A DNA stretch of 64,000 bases. It comes from Nitrosopumilus sp. Nsub (lineage in GTDB: Archaea; Thermoproteota; Nitrososphaeria; Nitrososphaerales; Nitrosopumilaceae). This document shows, one piece after another, positions 4,825 through 55,798 of this stretch. How positions within the stretch are numbered: position 1 is the stretch's first letter; each line of letters begins with the position of its first letter. The notes below the pieces were generated by a model that had not been told where the DNA came from, searched no databases, and worked only from the letters and a program-made list of their open reading frames with translations. The translations under genes were made by a program, and so were the position numbers. The DNA is taken from NCBI RefSeq assembly GCF_001541925.1, contig NZ_LQMW01000019.1:62001-126000 (forward strand), read 5' to 3'.

Positions 4825-7494
4825 TTGGATAAAAATCAGATTTTAAAAGAATTCTCCTCAGATCCAGACAAGTACTATAATGTCAAATTATTTCAAGAAC
4901 AAGGATTTATCAGAAAATCATGTTCCAAATGTGGGAGATTTTTTTGGACTTTAGATGCAGATAGAACACTTTGTCCAGATGATGGTACTGACACATATTC
5001 ATTCATTGGAGAACCACCAACATCTAAGAGATTTGATTATACACAATCTTGGAAACAAGTTGAAGAATTTTTTGTAAAAAATAATCATACATCAGTTAGC
5101 AGATATCCTGTAGTATGTAGATGGCGTGATGATTTGTATTTTACAATTGCATCGATTGTGGATTTTCAGAGAATTATGGGTTCAAAAGTTGTTTTTGAAT
5201 TTCCTGCAAACCCATTAGTAGTTCCACAAACATGTTTGAGATTCAAAGACTTGGAGAATGTAGGAGTTACTGGAAGACATTTTTCAAGTTTTTGTATGAT
5301 TGGACAACACAGTGTTCCAAACAATCAAGGATATTGGAAAGATGAATGTGTTGATTTGGATTATAGATTACTAACTGATCAATTTGGAATTAAGAAAGAA
5401 GAAGTGGTTTTTGTAGAAGATGTATGGGCCGGTGGGGGTTCTTTTGGTCCATCACTTGAATATTTTGTAAGAGGATTAGAATTAGGAAATGCAGTATTTA
5501 CGGAATTCCAAGGCGAACTAGGACAACATACAACACTAGATCAAAGAGTAATTGACATGGGAGCAGGACTAGAAAGATTTGCATGGATTACAATGGGCAC
5601 ACCTACAGCCTATGATTGTTGTTTTGGACCAATTAATGAAAAATTGTTTAACAAAATTGGAATAGATTCAGACTCAGAAATTTTACGAAAGTACTTTACA
5701 GAAATTGCAAAAGAAATTGATCACTACGATGATCTTAACGAAGTAAGACGTCTTGCAATAAAGAATGCAGGAATTACAGATTCACAATTAACAAAAATGA
5801 TTACACCAATGGAAGGAATGTATCTAATTGCAGATCATCTACGAACATTGATTTTTGCAATTACAGATGGGGCACTACCAAGTAATGTTGGTGGCGGATA
5901 TAATCTTAGAATGATGTTACGAAGAATAAATGCAACAGTGGGTAAATTAAATCTCAAACTAGACATTGATGACTTGATTGATACACATATTGATTATCTA
6001 AAAGACACCTATCCAGAACTCAACGAGAAAAGAGAAGATGTCAAACAAATTCTCAAAATAGAATCTGCCAGATATGAAGAATCAAAGGTACACATGAAGA
6101 AAAAAGCAGAGAAAATTCGTGAAAAAGGCACTCCAACAGTGGAGGAACTCATTACGTTTTACGAATCAGATGGAATTACTCCAGAATATCTAAAAGAAGT
6201 TGATGCAATTGCTGAAGTTCCATCATCATTTTACTCAAAATTATCAGATTTACACCAATCAGAAAAGAAAAAAGCAATTACAGAATTACCATTAGAAAAA
6301 CTTCCAGAGACTGAAACCCTATTTTACAAAGATGACCCAATGGAATTTGAGGCTAAAGTAATCAAAGTATTTGACGACCAAGTGGTATTAGACAAAACAT
6401 CATTTTATGCCAGAGGAGGAGGTCAAGAACCAGACCATGGAAGTATCGCAGAGTTTGAAGTAGTTGATGTAGATAAACATGCAGACATTATTGTTCATAA
6501 ATTAAAAGGTGGAATTCCAAACGAAGGAGATACTGTACAGTGTAAAGTAGATGCAACAAGACGTTCTAACATTACAAAGAACCACACAAGTACTCACATC
6601 ATCAATACATCAGCTAGAAGTGTTTTAGGATCCTGGGTTTGGCAACACTCTGCATTCAAAGATGATGATCACGCAAGATTAGACATTACACATCACTCTT
6701 CACTTAATGATCAACAAGTAAAACAAATCGAAGATGCAGCAAATAAAATGATTAAAGACAACTATCCTGTCAAAATTGAATACTTTGATAGAGGAACTGC
6801 AGAACAACAGTACGGATTTAGAATTTATCAAGGGGGAGTTGTTCCAGTAAAATCTGTAAGAATTGTGTCAATTGAAGATAAAGACATTGAAGCTTGTGGA
6901 GGAACTCATGTAAAAAATACAGGAGATATAGAATTAATCAAAATTACAAAAACAAAGAGAATTCAAGATGGAGTTGTTCGTTTAGAGTTTGTATCAGGAC
7001 CAAATGCATTTGAATATGTCAAAGAACAAGAAGAAGAATCAAAGAGAAAAGAACAACAAGCAATTGAAAAACAACAATTAGAAAAACAAAGAGAAGAAAA
7101 CAAAGACAAAGCAAGAGAGAAAATCCCAGTATTCATAGAGAAAATTTTAGCAGGAGAATCATTAGACTCTGAAGAAATCAACAGTAAAGGAAAACTTTGC
7201 TTTACAGCTAGTAATAATTATGATGATTATTTCAATCAAAACTTTGGCAAGAAACTAGTTGCTAAAGATGATACTGCAGCATTTTGTGGAATTTTTGAGG
7301 CCGGTCCAACTATACGAGTAATGATATTTGCAGGCAAGAAATCAGGCGTAAACGCAGGTGAAATTGCCAAAGAAATAGCCTCAATTTTAGGGGGTTCTGG
7401 TGGCGGTGATGCTAAATTTGCTCAAGGCGGAGGTAAAGACACATCTAAAAAAGACGAAGCAATACAAAAAGCAAAATCAATGATTTTAGGATAA
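4825..7494 (+). CDS. alaS: Alanyl-tRNA synthetase
   Basis: This enzyme charges tRNA-Ala and hydrolyses mischarged Ser/Gly-tRNA-Ala. The 889-residue product is of archaeal size. It has the archaeal N-terminal cysteine motif (CSKCGRFFWTLDADRTLCPDDG, near residues 33-54), a class II catalytic core, and an editing domain with NHTSTH (about 586-591) and CGGTHVKNTGD (about 691-701), which form the zinc/editing site, followed by a coiled-coil linker rich in E, K and Q and a Gly-rich C-Ala end. TTG 4825 is the start, consistent with neighbours that use TTG. leuS follows seven bases later. Confidence 0.97.
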   Translation: MDKNQILKEFSSDPDKYYNVKLFQEQGFIRKSCSKCGRFFWTLDADRTLCPDDGTDTYSFIGEPPTSKRFDYTQSWKQVEEFFVKNNHTSVSRYPVVCRWRDDLYFTIASIVDFQRIMGSKVVFEFPANPLVVPQTCLRFKDLENVGVTGRHFSSFCMIGQHSVPNNQGYWKDECVDLDYRLLTDQFGIKKEEVVFVEDVWAGGGSFGPSLEYFVRGLELGNAVFTEFQGELGQHTTLDQRVIDMGAGLERFAWITMGTPTAYDCCFGPINEKLFNKIGIDSDSEILRKYFTEIAKEIDHYDDLNEVRRLAIKNAGITDSQLTKMITPMEGMYLIADHLRTLIFAITDGALPSNVGGGYNLRMMLRRINATVGKLNLKLDIDDLIDTHIDYLKDTYPELNEKREDVKQILKIESARYEESKVHMKKKAEKIREKGTPTVEELITFYESDGITPEYLKEVDAIAEVPSSFYSKLSDLHQSEKKKAITELPLEKLPETETLFYKDDPMEFEAKVIKVFDDQVVLDKTSFYARGGGQEPDHGSIAEFEVVDVDKHADIIVHKLKGGIPNEGDTVQCKVDATRRSNITKNHTSTHIINTSARSVLGSWVWQHSAFKDDDHARLDITHHSSLNDQQVKQIEDAANKMIKDNYPVKIEYFDRGTAEQQYGFRIYQGGVVPVKSVRIVSIEDKDIEACGGTHVKNTGDIELIKITKTKRIQDGVVRLEFVSGPNAFEYVKEQEEESKRKEQQAIEKQQLEKQREENKDKAREKIPVFIEKILAGESLDSEEINSKGKLCFTASNNYDDYFNQNFGKKLVAKDDTAAFCGIFEAGPTIRVMIFAGKKSGVNAGEIAKEIASILGGSGGGDAKFAQGGGKDTSKKDEAIQKAKSMILG

Positions 7495-50739: not shown

Positions 50740-51681
50740 TTGAAATCTAAAGCATCAGCTCCAGGAAAGGTTATTCTGTTTGGTGAACACTTTGTTGTTT
50801 ATGGAATTAAATCAATTTTATGTTCTATCAACAAAAGAGTTACAGTAACTGCAGAAAAAACTAATGAAAGAAAAATTTCAATTAATTCAGAGATTGGAAC
50901 GTTAGTTTTAGATCCAGATGAATCAATTACAAAAATTAATTCTCCACTAAAACCATTTTATTATTTAGCAAACAAAGCACTCAAAGATCAAAATGAAGGA
51001 TTAAAAATTCAAATTGAATCAGAGATTCCATTAGGGGCTGGATTAGGTTCATCATCAGCATGTTGCGTAGCAGGTGCGGCAGCAATTTTTAAAGTATTTG
51101 GAGAAATTTCAAAGGAGAAAATATTAGAACTTGCTATTGAGGCTGAAAAAACAATTTATCAAAATACATCAGGAGCAGATTGCACAGTTTCCACGTATGG
51201 AGGGTTAATGGAATATGATAAAAATAATGGATTTAGAAAAATTGAAGACGAGCCTAATTTTCAATTAATAATTGTAAATTCAAACATTAAACATTCAACT
51301 GAAACAATGGTTTCAAAAGTAAAAGAGTTTGAAAATAAAAATAAAGAAAAATTCCACGAATTGTCAAATTTGGAATCAAAATTAGTCAATGATGTTTTAA
51401 AATTAATTAAAGAAAATAAGATTGAAGAAATTGGAGAAAAATTAAATTTAAATCAAAAATTTTTAGAGGAAATCGGTATCTCTAATGAACAATTAGAAAC
51501 TATGATCAAAATTGGACAAAAATCATCATATGGTGCAAAGATAACAGGTTCCGGTGGTGGCGGATGTATTTTTGCATTAACAAATAATTCAAATTTAGAA
51601 TATACCTTAAAGGAATTTACCAATAAGGAATACGAATGTTTTGCAGCAAAGATAGATTTCAAAGGACTGAACACTTTTTAA
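50740..51681 (+). CDS. mvk: Mevalonate kinase
   Basis: Phosphorylates mevalonate, the first committed step to isoprenoid lipid precursors. The 313-residue GHMP kinase (TTG 50740) has the N-terminal SAPGKVILFGEHFVVYG, the phosphate loop PLGAGLGSSSACCVAGAAAI (residues near 96-115), and the C-terminal motif KITGSGGGGCIFAL. Its product feeds, through other enzymes, isopentenyl phosphate kinase just downstream. Confidence 0.95.
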   Translation: MKSKASAPGKVILFGEHFVVYGIKSILCSINKRVTVTAEKTNERKISINSEIGTLVLDPDESITKINSPLKPFYYLANKALKDQNEGLKIQIESEIPLGAGLGSSSACCVAGAAAIFKVFGEISKEKILELAIEAEKTIYQNTSGADCTVSTYGGLMEYDKNNGFRKIEDEPNFQLIIVNSNIKHSTETMVSKVKEFENKNKEKFHELSNLESKLVNDVLKLIKENKIEEIGEKLNLNQKFLEEIGISNEQLETMIKIGQKSSYGAKITGSGGGGCIFALTNNSNLEYTLKEFTNKEYECFAAKIDFKGLNTF

Positions 51682-51704: not shown

Positions 51705-52457
51705 ATGATTCTAATAAAATTAGGCGGTTCAATAATTACAAATAAAGAAAAACCATTATCAGCAAGAAGAAAGACAATTGACAATTTAACAAAAAGTTTG
51801 AAAAAAATTAAAGAACCAATCATAATTGTTCACGGCGGAGGATCATATGGGCATTATTGGTCAGTAAAATATGATATGCATACCAAAGAAAGAAAATACG
51901 ATATCAGAGGGGTTTCAATTATTAAAAATTCAATGATAGATTTGAATAAAATAATTTTAGATTCATGTTTGAAAAATAAATTAAATCCATATTCTTTACC
52001 CCCAACTGATTTTATGTCAGGTAACAAACCAATTTCAAAAAAAATTAAAGAAGTTGAAAAAATAGCAAAATCAGGCTTAATTCCAGTTACATATGGAGAT
52101 GCATTATGGTTTGGTCAAAATAAAACATACATTTTATCAGGGGATAAAATTATGACTCATTTTGCAAAAGTTCTAAAACCAAGATTGTGTATTTTTGCAT
52201 TAAATGAAGATGGGCTATATTCAGATCTTAAATCAAAAAAATTAATTTCAGAATTAAAAGGAACCATGCCATCAATATCAGAAAATAAAATGGATGTTAC
52301 GGGAGGAATGACTAGGAAAGTAGAAGAAGCAATTAAAATTTCTAAAATGGGTATGAATGTGTTTTTTGTTAATGGAAAAAAACCAGAAAGAATTGTAAAA
52401 GCTATTCAAAATAGAGAGTTTAAAGGAACCATGTTTAAAGGAAAAAGAAATGCCTGA
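51705..52457 (+). CDS. ipk: Isopentenyl phosphate kinase
   Basis: Converts isopentenyl phosphate to isopentenyl diphosphate in the archaeal mevalonate variant. The 250-residue amino-acid-kinase-fold protein has LIKLGGSIITNKEKPLSARRK, IIVHGGGSYGHYWSVKYDMHTK (with the phosphate-binding glycines and catalytic His), LIPVTYGDALW and a C-terminal DVTGGMTRKVEEAIKISKMGMNVFFVNGKKPERI. Overlaps the next gene by eight bases, so translation is coupled. Confidence 0.94.
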   Translation: MILIKLGGSIITNKEKPLSARRKTIDNLTKSLKKIKEPIIIVHGGGSYGHYWSVKYDMHTKERKYDIRGVSIIKNSMIDLNKIILDSCLKNKLNPYSLPPTDFMSGNKPISKKIKEVEKIAKSGLIPVTYGDALWFGQNKTYILSGDKIMTHFAKVLKPRLCIFALNEDGLYSDLKSKKLISELKGTMPSISENKMDVTGGMTRKVEEAIKISKMGMNVFFVNGKKPERIVKAIQNREFKGTMFKGKRNA

Positions 52458-53100
52458 AGAATTTGTGATATTAGTAGATGAAAATGACAACCCCATAGGA
52501 TTAGAAGAGAAAGTAAAATGTCATTTACCAAATGGGAAATTGCATAGAGCATTTACTGCATTATTATTTGATGAAGATGGAAGACTGGTACTAACTAAAA
52601 GAGCAAAAGAAAAAATGCTGTGGCCAGGGGATTGGGATGGAACATTTGCAAGCCATCCAAGAGAATCAGAAGGATATGTCTCATCAGGAGAAAGAAGAAT
52701 GCCTGAAGAATTAGGAATTAATGGAAAACTAGATTATTTTCATAAATTTGAATATCATGTACCTTACAAAGACGTTGGTTCAGAAAATGAAATTTGTGGA
52801 ACATTAGTTGGAGTAATTGATAAAAATACAAAATTAAAAGAAATTGAAGGAGAAATTGATGAAATCAAATGGATTTCAGCCAAAGAATTAATCAAAGAAA
52901 TAAAAATAAATCCTGAGATTTATTGTCCCTGGATGTTAATTGCATTAGAATTTCTTGATAAATCAGACAAAGACATGCTCAAAAAACACGAAAATGTATT
53001 ATCTACGTGGATAAATACTGAAATTCATGAGGGATTACAAGAAGCAATTAAGACCCACTTACCTAAAGAAAAATGGAGATTATTAGATGAAGAAAAATAA
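52450..53100 (+). CDS. idi: Isopentenyl-diphosphate isomerase, type I fold, catalytic Cys replaced
   Basis: Nudix-fold enzyme expected to interconvert IPP and DMAPP. The 216-residue product aligns to E. coli Idi with conserved metal ligands (H25, H32 in CHLPNGKLHRAF; H69; Glu in SENEICG) and the Nudix-like RRMPEELGI helix. The catalytic cysteine of Idi, in the Trp-x4-Cys-Gly-His-Pro motif (C67 in E. coli), is here Ala67 (WDGTFASHP). About 30 extra C-terminal residues follow the usual end. It may be inactive, use another acid/base, or have a different substrate. Confidence 0.85.
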   Translation: MPEEFVILVDENDNPIGLEEKVKCHLPNGKLHRAFTALLFDEDGRLVLTKRAKEKMLWPGDWDGTFASHPRESEGYVSSGERRMPEELGINGKLDYFHKFEYHVPYKDVGSENEICGTLVGVIDKNTKLKEIEGEIDEIKWISAKELIKEIKINPEIYCPWMLIALEFLDKSDKDMLKKHENVLSTWINTEIHEGLQEAIKTHLPKEKWRLLDEEK

Positions 53101-54067
53101 ACAAATTGAGAAAAATGCTAAAATCGTTAACAGATTTTTAAATTCTAAATTAAATGGAAATCCAAAAAAGCTATATGATGCAGCAGGACATCTAATTGTA
53201 AATGGTGGAAAAAGACTTCGACCATACATGGTAATCAAAAGTTGTCAGATTTTAGGTGGTAAATCATCAAATGCAATGATAGCTGCTAGTGCTGTAGAAA
53301 TGGTACACAACTTTACTCTTGTGCATGATGACATTATGGATAATGATGAAATGCGCCACGGTGTACCAACAGTACATAAAAAATTTGGAATGCCAATTGC
53401 AATTTTAGCAGGAGATGTATTATTTTCCAAAGCATTTCAGATTATTTCAGAATCAAAATTATCACCAAAAGCTACAACGCATCTAATTTCTAGACTTGCA
53501 AAAGCTTGCGTAGATGTTTGTGAAGGACAATTATTAGATATTAAAATGGCAGATGAAAAAAGAATCCCAACAGAAAAAGAATACATCACAATGATAGGGA
53601 AAAAAACTGCAGCGTTGTTTGATGTTTCATGTGCAATGGGAGCAATTTCTGCAACAAACAAACCTAAAGATATTTCAAATCTTTCAACATTTGGAAAAAA
53701 CTTAGGAATTGCATTTCAAATTACAGATGACTTGATAGGAGTAATGGGGGATCCCAAGATTACTGGAAAAGCAGTAGGTAATGATTTGAGAGAAGGTAAA
53801 AAATCACTGCCAATTTTAATGGCAATAAAATTAGCAAAGGGTAATGAAAAAAAGATAATTCTAAAAGCATTTGGAAATCCAAAGATTTCAAAAAAAGATT
53901 TGAATAAAGCCGTTGAAATCATTCGTTCACTAGGAATTGAAGAAAAAGTAAGAAATCAGGCTCTAAAATATGCAGAAAAGTCTGAAAAATCACTTACAAA
54001 ATACAAGGGAACTGCAAAAATAGAGTTAATTGCATTATTAGATTTTGTAGTTAAACGAAGCGTTTAG
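53087..54067 (+). CDS. idsA: Isoprenyl diphosphate synthase (GGPP/FPP synthase)
   Basis: Makes the C15-C20 chains used for archaeal ether lipids. The 326-residue protein has GGKRLRPYMV near residue 45, the first Asp-rich motif LVHDDIMDNDEMRHGVPTVHKKFG (DDxxD), and the second, FQITDDLIGVMGDPKITGKAVGNDLREGKKSLPI (DDxxD). It overlaps idi by 14 bases and ends next to the GluRS start. Product length cannot be set from the sequence alone. Confidence 0.95.
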   Translation: MKKNKQIEKNAKIVNRFLNSKLNGNPKKLYDAAGHLIVNGGKRLRPYMVIKSCQILGGKSSNAMIAASAVEMVHNFTLVHDDIMDNDEMRHGVPTVHKKFGMPIAILAGDVLFSKAFQIISESKLSPKATTHLISRLAKACVDVCEGQLLDIKMADEKRIPTEKEYITMIGKKTAALFDVSCAMGAISATNKPKDISNLSTFGKNLGIAFQITDDLIGVMGDPKITGKAVGNDLREGKKSLPILMAIKLAKGNEKKIILKAFGNPKISKKDLNKAVEIIRSLGIEEKVRNQALKYAEKSEKSLTKYKGTAKIELIALLDFVVKRSV

Positions 54068-54088
54068 TTGAAAAAAGGTAGTATCAAC

Positions 54089-55798
54089 ATGGATGAAGAA
54101 ATTAAAAAAGAGATTAGAAAACTTACTCTTCAAAACGCGTTTGAGCACGGAGGCGAAACTAGAGATAAAATAATTTTAGGAAAGATTCTTGGAACAAAAC
54201 CAGAATTTAGAACTAAGGTTAAAGAAATTTCGATTGAGATTTCTGAAATTGTTTCAAATGTAAATAAATTATCAATAGATGATCAAAAAAAAGAGATTGA
54301 AGAAAATTTTCCAGAAATATTAGCTCCTAAAGAAAAGATTAAGGAAAAAGAAGGTTTACCAGAGTTAAAAAATGCACAACAAGGAAATGTCATTACAAGA
54401 TTCCCACCAGAACCAAACGGATATCCACACATAGGTCATGCAAAAGCAGCTATCATCAATTCAGAATATGCAAAAATGTATGGAGGGAAATTCATTCTAA
54501 GAATGGATGATACAAATCCTGAAGCTGAAAGAATGGAATATCATGCTGCAATTAAAGTGGGATTAGAATGGTTAGGAATAGAATTTGACATTGTCAAAAG
54601 TACTTCTGATGATATGAAAATATTTTATGAAAAAGGAATGGAGTTAATCAATTCTGGAAAAGCATACATTTGCAAATGTAAAAGAGACGACATCAGTAAA
54701 AATAGACGGGAAAGAAAAGCATGTAAATGCAGTCAAGAGGACGTGGATAAAAATATCAGTAATTGGGGGAAAATGGAAACTAAATTCAAACCAGGGGAAG
54801 CAATAGTTAGATTTCGAGGAGACATGCAAGCTGATAATGCAGTGATGAGAGATCCGGTCTTATTCAGAATTATTGAAGGCAAACATTACACAGTAGGCGA
54901 AAAATACAGAATTTGGCCAAGTTATGATTTTGCAGTTGCAATTGAAGATAGTATTGATGGAATTACGCACGCTTTTCGTTCAAAAGAATTTGAATTGAGA
55001 GAAGAATTAACAGAAGCAATTTTAGATTCGCTAAATATGAGAAAACCACAACAAGGATTTTTCTCAAGATTGGAATTCAAAGGTATGCCAATTTCAAAAA
55101 GAATCATCAAACCATTGATTGAGGAACGTAAAGTTTCATGGTATGACGATCCTAGGTTACCAACTTTAGAAGCATTAAAGAAAAGAGGAATCAAACCGGA
55201 GGCAATTAGAAAATTCATTATGTCATTAGGTTTAACCAAAGCAAATACTCTAGCACCCTTTGATTCTCTAGAGGCATTTAACAGAAAATTTGTTGATGAA
55301 AGTAGCATTAGATTGTATATGGTTATTAATCCAAAAAAATTATCAGTAAAAAATTTAACAATCACATCAGTTGAGGTTTCAAATCACCCAGTAAATGATT
55401 TGGGTAAACGTAAAATTGATGTTGATGAAAATTTTTACATTTCTGGAGAAGATGCAGAGAATCTCAAAGAGGGAGAACAAGTACGACTTTTAGGATTAGG
55501 AAATATTTTGATTACAAAACAAGGAGAGGAGTTAGAAGGAGAATATGTAAAAGATGGAGATATTACAAATATTCCAAAAATACAATGGGTTGCACAAAAA
55601 ACAGGACATAAAATTAAAGTGATTATTCCCAAAGTATTGTTTATTGATGAAAAGTTTAACGAAGATAGTCTAGAAGAACTTGATGCTTATTGTGAACCAC
55701 ATTACTTACAATTAAAAGAAGGTGAAGAAATACAATTTATTAGATTTGGATATTGTAGAAAAGATTCACAAAACCAAACAATTTTCACACACAAGTGA
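54089..55798 (+). CDS. gltX: Glutamyl-tRNA synthetase (archaeal type)
   Basis: Class I synthetase. The product begins MDEEIKKEIRK (ATG 54089; TTG 54068, directly after the previous stop, would add seven residues). HIGH motif in FPPEPNGYPHIGHAKAA, KMSKS-type GMPISKRIIK, and the archaeal/eukaryal beta-barrel anticodon domain (LSVKNLTITSVEVSNHPVNDLGKR...). It has an N-terminal about 110-residue extension typical of archaeal GluRS. It probably also charges tRNA-Gln, with amidation by GatDE or GatCAB, as no GlnRS is seen here. Confidence 0.95.
   Translation: MDEEIKKEIRKLTLQNAFEHGGETRDKIILGKILGTKPEFRTKVKEISIEISEIVSNVNKLSIDDQKKEIEENFPEILAPKEKIKEKEGLPELKNAQQGNVITRFPPEPNGYPHIGHAKAAIINSEYAKMYGGKFILRMDDTNPEAERMEYHAAIKVGLEWLGIEFDIVKSTSDDMKIFYEKGMELINSGKAYICKCKRDDISKNRRERKACKCSQEDVDKNISNWGKMETKFKPGEAIVRFRGDMQADNAVMRDPVLFRIIEGKHYTVGEKYRIWPSYDFAVAIEDSIDGITHAFRSKEFELREELTEAILDSLNMRKPQQGFFSRLEFKGMPISKRIIKPLIEERKVSWYDDPRLPTLEALKKRGIKPEAIRKFIMSLGLTKANTLAPFDSLEAFNRKFVDESSIRLYMVINPKKLSVKNLTITSVEVSNHPVNDLGKRKIDVDENFYISGEDAENLKEGEQVRLLGLGNILITKQGEELEGEYVKDGDITNIPKIQWVAQKTGHKIKVIIPKVLFIDEKFNEDSLEELDAYCEPHYLQLKEGEEIQFIRFGYCRKDSQNQTIFTHK

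What the first reader, a model, noticed from the sequence alone, without database searches (positions are those of the whole stretch)
52450..53100. Isopentenyl-diphosphate isomerase with its catalytic cysteine replaced by alanine
By alignment from memory to E. coli Idi, the metal ligands H25, H32, H69 and the ENE(I/V)C segment are conserved, but the catalytic cysteine (C67 in WTNSVCGHP) is Ala67 (WDGTFASHP). Mutation of this Cys cripples the bacterial enzyme. The gene sits between isopentenyl phosphate kinase and the prenyl synthase, so selection for function is expected. Either another residue does the acid-base work, another isomerase (type II) acts and this protein has moved to a new substrate, or the reaction differs.
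Basis: partly seen in the sequence, partly recalled or inferred. Interest (0 to 1): 0.6.

Follow-up and report, generated by a model that had tools for sequence, protein, structure and literature searches.

The report
IPP isomerase lacking its catalytic cysteine
An abundant group of marine ammonia-oxidising archaea seems to make an essential membrane-lipid building block with a relative of a textbook enzyme that lacks the amino acid held to be part of its catalytic core, so the accepted mechanism cannot apply to it unchanged.

Summary
The 216-aa ORF at 52450-53100 (+) is homologous to type I (Nudix-fold) IPP isomerase and keeps the metal ligands, Tyr104, Glu116, Trp161 and the diphosphate-binding residues, but has Ala at catalytic Cys67. 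It is no error: all 99 readable distinct proteins of the window's family (Nitrosopumilaceae by named records) have Ala67. The 99.6%-complete genome has no type II isomerase (fni), no ispH and no other IDI-like protein. In 13 relatives that have fni, it sits between IPK and the prenyl synthase, exactly where this gene sits here. Two other archaeal families without fni have Cys67-less homologues (Thr67, Ala67) elsewhere and an empty operon slot; one further genome (Thr67) also lacks fni. So this is very probably the cell's only IPP isomerase, working without Cys67. Every Cys67-less protein examined, human IDI2 included, has an acidic residue at position 63/64 and a Cys at E. coli position 118; of 22 Cys67-containing isomerases, 0 have that acid and 6 that Cys. 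I propose that Asp63, or water it holds, or less likely Cys116, takes over from Cys67. Activity and geometry are untested, and the co-variation rests on few independent events.

The parts
52450..53100 (+). Cys67-less type I (Nudix-fold) IPP isomerase homologue, 216 aa (P0001)
   Evidence: NCBIfam NF002995 130.6 bits (cut-off 127) and TIGR02150 108.6 (cut-off 105.8); best PDB sequence hits are Idi; AF2 model best matches E. coli Idi
52648..52650 (+). Ala67 codon, at the position of catalytic Cys67 of E. coli Idi
   Evidence: Ala in 99 of 99 readable distinct family proteins
52636..52638 (+). Asp63, candidate replacement acid/base (or water holder)
   Evidence: invariant in the family; acid at 63/64 in 25/25 Cys67-less rows and 0/22 Cys67 rows
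52795..52797 (+). Cys116 (= E. coli C118), second candidate; same strand as Glu112/Glu114
   Evidence: 100/100 family proteins; 25/25 Cys67-less rows, 6/22 Cys67 rows
52783..52791 (+). Glu112-Asn113-Glu114 (= E. coli E114/N/E116): metal ligands and the other acid/base
   Evidence: invariant
52753..52755 (+). Tyr102 (= E. coli Y104)
   Evidence: invariant
52522..52545 (+). His25 to His32, metal ligands (the third is His69, 52654-52656)
   Evidence: invariant where readable
52924..52932 (+). Cys159-Pro160-Trp161; Trp161 = E. coli W161; Cys159 invariant in this family, Ser/Thr in the other IDIs examined
   Evidence: 100/100
52945..53097 (+). C-terminal extension of about 50 aa, largely absent from the f4 homologues; holds invariant W187, W209, R210
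50740..51681 (+). mevalonate kinase (GHMP kinase)
   Evidence: Pfam GHMP_kinases_N/C; operon position
51705..52457 (+). isopentenyl phosphate kinase (amino-acid-kinase fold); overlaps the isomerase gene by 8 nt
   Evidence: Pfam AA_kinase; IPK assignment from operon context
53087..54067 (+). polyprenyl (probably geranylgeranyl) diphosphate synthase; overlaps the isomerase gene by 14 nt
   Evidence: Pfam polyprenyl_synt 2e-74
54068..55798 (+). glutamyl-tRNA synthetase, conserved downstream neighbour
   Evidence: name from reading the sequence, no family search run on it

Best explanation
The protein is the organism's IPP:DMAPP isomerase. It stands in the mevalonate operon of this archaeal family in the place of the flavin-dependent type II isomerase (fni) and works on the type I scaffold (His25/His32/His69/Glu112/Glu114 metal site; Lys21/Arg51/Lys55/Arg83/Glu87 diphosphate site; Tyr102-Glu114 on one face of the substrate; Trp161 stabilising the cation) without Cys67. 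Shown: homology, conservation, absence of other known isomerases, exchange of genes in the same operon slot. Inferred: that it isomerises IPP. Proposed: the second acid/base is Asp63 or a water held by it in the space left by the Cys (my probability about 0.4, given that it is an isomerase), else Glu114 alone on one face (about 0.25) or Cys116 (about 0.2).
For: Passes two NCBIfam IDI-1 equivalog cut-offs; best PDB sequence and fold matches are Idi (E. coli Idi TM 0.82 by target length). Own genome: no fni, no ispH, one IDI-like protein, four other Nudix proteins without the IDI active site. Class survey of 300 genomes: IDI-1-like in 165 of 171 genomes of the window's family and in 15 of family f4, none with fni over cut-off; fni over cut-off in 105 genomes of other families. 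Phylum: 311 of 397 have fni, none listed from the window's family. Slot: in all 13 fni genomes examined, fni lies between IPK and the prenyl synthase; here the Cys67-less gene does. Families f4 and f66 lack fni, IPK abuts the synthase, and a Cys67-less homologue lies elsewhere. Other catalytic residues invariant. Acid at 63/64: 25/25 Cys67-less vs 0/22 Cys67; Cys at Ec118: 25/25 vs 6/22 (human IDI2 has S67, D64, C118, IDI1 has C67, N64, D118).
Against: No activity data. Cys67 is regarded as a catalytic residue of E. coli and human type I enzymes (PMC11415240), and a C67A mutant was crystallised with an inhibitor (paper title; PDB 1ow2/1q54 carry Ala there). The co-variation rests on 2-3 independent changes, so no significance can be claimed (sign test p 0.5). 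Asp63 also occurs in two hydrolase-like Nudix proteins, so it may be an ancestral feature. Distances of Asp63 or Cys116 from the substrate could not be measured: the model tool gives no coordinates.
Confidence: 0.85

Rival explanations
1. IPP isomerase in which Glu114 (with Tyr102) does both proton transfers on one face; the vacated Cys67 side is only a wall.
For: Glu114/Tyr102/Trp161 invariant; position 67 is Ala, Thr or Ser in different Cys67-less groups, so no single side chain is selected there.
Against: An acid at 63/64 accompanies absence of Cys67 in 25/25 rows against 0/22, which suggests compensation.
Confidence: 0.22
2. Relocated thiol: Cys116 (E. coli 118), two residues after the catalytic Glu on the same strand, acts as the acid/base.
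For: Invariant in all Cys67-less groups, present in only 6/22 Cys67 enzymes.
Against: Also present in E. coli Idi, which nevertheless uses Cys67; a strand position beside Glu116 would put it on the Glu face, not the Cys67 face (inference from strand pairing).
Confidence: 0.17
3. A Nudix pyrophosphohydrolase (for example IPP/DMAPP to monophosphates, cycling with the adjacent IPK), not an isomerase.
For: Nudix fold; lacks the isomerase Cys; lies next to IPK; plants are reported to have an IPK-Nudix cycle (own knowledge).
Against: The catalytic Glu of the Nudix box (RExxEE) is Arg83 as in isomerases; hydrolase-like relatives have Glu83 and mostly lack Tyr104 and Trp161; the genome would then have no known isomerase; it sits in fni's slot.
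Confidence: 0.07
4. Isomerase acting one step earlier, on isopentenyl phosphate, before IPK.
For: Adjacent to IPK.
Against: Diphosphate-site residues are kept (K21, R51, K55, R83, E87), and fni, whose place it takes, acts on IPP.
Confidence: 0.03
5. Sequencing error or pseudogene.
For: None found.
Against: Ala67 in 99 of 99 readable distinct proteins; other catalytic residues invariant.
Confidence: 0.005

Closest known systems
Type I IPP isomerase (E. coli Idi, human IDI1)
   Same: Nudix fold, H25/H32/H69/E114/E116 metal site, Y104, W161, R83 in place of the hydrolase Glu, diphosphate site; both NCBIfam equivalog cut-offs passed
   Different: Cys67 is Ala; Asn64, found in all 22 Cys67 rows, is Gly (Ala in 2); Thr/Ser/Ala63 is Asp; about 50-aa C-terminal extension with invariant W187, W209, R210
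Human IDI2 (PDB 2pny)
   Same: natural paralogue without Cys67 (Ser), with an acid at 64 and Cys at 118
   Different: close paralogue of human IDI1, beside that intact enzyme; here the Cys67-less protein is the only candidate isomerase
Type II IPP isomerase (fni/IDI2, flavin-dependent TIM barrel)
   Same: same operon slot between IPK and the prenyl synthase; same proposed reaction
   Different: unrelated fold; absent from this genome
YfcD-like Nudix hydrolases (PDB 2fkb)
   Same: fold, some metal ligands; WD at 62-63 in two hydrolase-like relatives
   Different: RExxEE box; most relatives examined lack Y104 and W161

Membership tests
Canonical type I IPP isomerase | sequence over curated equivalog cut-offs (TIGR02150, NF002995) | tested here: met
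   108.6 vs 105.8; 130.6 vs 127 bits
Canonical type I IPP isomerase | Nudix/IDI fold | tested here: met
   AF2 pLDDT 89.4; top Foldseek hits are Idi
Canonical type I IPP isomerase | metal ligands H25, H32, H69, E114, E116 | tested here: met
   invariant
Canonical type I IPP isomerase | Tyr104 and Trp161 | tested here: met
Canonical type I IPP isomerase | catalytic Cys67 | tested here: not met
   Ala67 in 99 of 99 readable distinct proteins; so described as a Cys67-less variant, not a canonical member
Canonical type I IPP isomerase | IPP/DMAPP isomerisation in vitro | not testable with these tools
   needs expression and assay
Type II IPP isomerase (fni) | TIGR02151 match | tested here: not met
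   none in the genome; this protein has a Nudix fold
Nudix pyrophosphohydrolase | Nudix box GX5EX7REUXEEXGU with catalytic Glu | tested here: not met
   RRMPEELG: Arg83 in place of the Glu; Ser68 in place of the Gly (motif as given in PMC5389931)

The most novel reading that the evidence does not exclude
The Cys67-less proteins form a separate, possibly older mechanistic class of IPP isomerase in which a carboxylate at position 63 (or water bound to it) does the work of the thiol. The Cys of textbook type I enzymes would then be a later acquisition, and several archaeal lineages independently exchanged flavin-dependent type II isomerase for this class.
Probability: 0.35. Interest if true: 0.75.

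Novelty: new variant of a known kind. Interest (0 to 1): 0.55.

Why it matters
Cys67 is taken as one of the two acid/base residues of type I IPP isomerase. A whole family of ammonia-oxidising archaea that depends on a version without it would show that the residue is dispensable and would offer a natural system for testing the mechanism, including its stereochemistry (antarafacial or suprafacial). It also warns annotators: the curated models call this protein an ordinary isomerase and do not show the change. The exchange of fni for an unrelated enzyme in the same operon slot is a clear case of non-orthologous gene displacement.

Tried and rejected
Type II isomerase elsewhere in the genome: none. 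ispH/MEP pathway as a DMAPP source: none. Another Cys-containing IDI among the genome's Nudix proteins: none. Internal TGA codons flagged in some relatives: they appear only where the match runs one residue further (to 214-216), so I read them as the genes' own stop codons; not checked further. Viral relatives: none found. One clade of all archaeal Cys67-less proteins: not in the best tree, not rejected (p-AU 0.094). Literature: a type I gene in Thaumarchaeota and Haloarchaea is already known and ascribed to transfer from bacteria (PMC3533463); no paper found on absence of the Cys, but the library lacks most subscription journals. Haloarchaeal type I sequences could not be fetched. The structure tool gave no coordinates, so active-site distances were not measured.

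Full report
Observation. The ORF at 52450-53100 (+) encodes 216 aa. It aligns to E. coli and Salmonella Idi in the PDB (E 9e-24 for the best) with no gap up to about residue 91, so the numbering coincides; WTNSVCGHP is WDGTFASHP, so Cys67 is Ala. It passes two curated NCBIfam cut-offs for type I IPP isomerase, and its AlphaFold model (pLDDT 89.4) finds Idi structures first, ahead of the Nudix hydrolase YfcD. By named records its nearest relatives are Nitrosopumilus and other Nitrosopumilaceae.

Not an error. Among 100 distinct family proteins, all that can be read at the site have Ala67 (99; one is truncated), while H25, H32, R51, K55, H69, R82, R83 and E87 are invariant where readable and Y102, E112, E114, C116, C159 and W161 are 100/100. 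Selection has kept the rest of the active site.

Context. The gene overlaps IPK upstream and the prenyl synthase downstream in an operon eno-rpsB-MVK-IPK-IDI-GGPS-GluRS, seen in full in 69 fetched loci and in others as far as their contigs reach. The genome (99.6% complete) has no TIGR02151 (type II isomerase), no ispH, and four other Nudix proteins without the IDI active site.

Complementarity. In 300 genomes of the class, the type I-like protein is found in 165 of 171 genomes of the window's family and in 15 of family f4 (one more f4 genome shows only a hydrolase-like paralogue), none with type II over cut-off; 105 genomes of other families have type II over cut-off (my counts from the listings). 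Of the six family members without a match most are fragmented assemblies; one, G089, is listed as 99% complete in 120 contigs and is unexplained. In the phylum, 311 of 397 sampled genomes have type II.

Displacement in place. In all 13 type II genomes examined, fni lies between IPK and the prenyl synthase (L146-L153, L204, L205, L212 and L217 of one genome, L213, L214). The window's family has the Cys67-less gene in exactly that slot. Families f4 and f66 have no fni, IPK abuts the synthase, and a Cys67-less homologue lies elsewhere (L202; L195, L197). The two f62 genomes in f66's order keep fni and have no such homologue. One genome of family f12 (G246) also lacks fni over cut-off and has a divergent homologue with Thr67. 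By contrast f77 and f69 have canonical Cys67 enzymes; no fni over cut-off was found in three f77 genomes, nor in the single f69 genome, which is only 62% complete.

Compensation. Cys67-less rows: Nitrosopumilaceae (A67), f4 (T67), f66 (A67), f12 (T67), human IDI2 (S67). All 25 have Asp or Glu at 63 or 64 and Cys at E. coli position 118. Of 22 Cys67 rows, none has an acid at 63/64 (Asn64 in all) and 6 have Cys118. On a tree built without these columns Cys67 changes at least three times, but only two to three independent pairs exist, so the test cannot reach significance. The Fisher values ignore relatedness and are not used. Two hydrolase-like proteins also have Asp63, so the acid may be ancestral.

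Direction of change. In both trees f4/f66(/f12) branch outside a group that holds the Cys67 enzymes and the window's family. With hydrolase-like proteins as outgroup this allows a Cys gained in the canonical branch, or lost in the window's family. One clade of all archaeal Cys67-less proteins is not rejected (p-AU 0.094). Apart from E. coli Idi, bacterial rows came from plasmid records only, and several branches are long.

Mechanism. Shown: everything examined of the type I site but Cys67 (and its strand neighbours 63-64) is kept. Inferred: IPP isomerisation, from pathway need and displacement. Proposed: Asp63 or a bound water supplies the second acid/base; alternatives are a one-face Glu114 mechanism or Cys116. 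That Cys67 and its human equivalent are key residues is taken from PMC11415240 and paper titles; that human IDI2 is an active if weaker isomerase is my recollection and was not checked.

Known and new. Type I isomerase in Thaumarchaeota is known (PMC3533463). I found no report of its missing Cys, of the exact slot exchange with fni, or of the co-varying acid, in a library that lacks most subscription journals.

Noticed in passing
L134:1405-1995 (G246, family f12): Very divergent Cys67-less IDI homologue (LDVSATTHI, ENEFC, ITKWL) in a genome without type II isomerase over cut-off; possibly a further replacement of fni.
   Followed up: partly
L195:2682-3224 and L197:2584-3096 (family f66): IDI-like proteins with W-E-F-P-A-S-H and Thr83, beside an SDR-like gene and an ORF that looks like elongation factor 2, in genomes without type II isomerase; there MVK is transcribed divergently from IPK-GGPS-GluRS (L218, L219).
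   Followed up: partly
L191:3502-4029 and 6084-6650 (G619, family f77): A canonical Cys67 IDI and a second IDI-like Nudix protein with a hydrolase box (WDSSSSFH, with Tyr102 and Trp161) lie near each other next to MVK.
   Followed up: no
52945-53097: Family-specific C-terminal extension of about 50 aa with invariant Trp187, Trp209, Arg210; role unknown, possibly a lid over the active site or a dimer contact.
   Followed up: no
L158:995-1504 (Pseudomonas syringae plasmid): The annotated plasmid idi gene ends at a stop codon before the end of the tblastn match.
   Followed up: no
G089 (family f1, 99% complete, 120 contigs): Neither an IDI-like match nor type II isomerase over cut-off; probably an assembly gap, not checked.
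   Followed up: no
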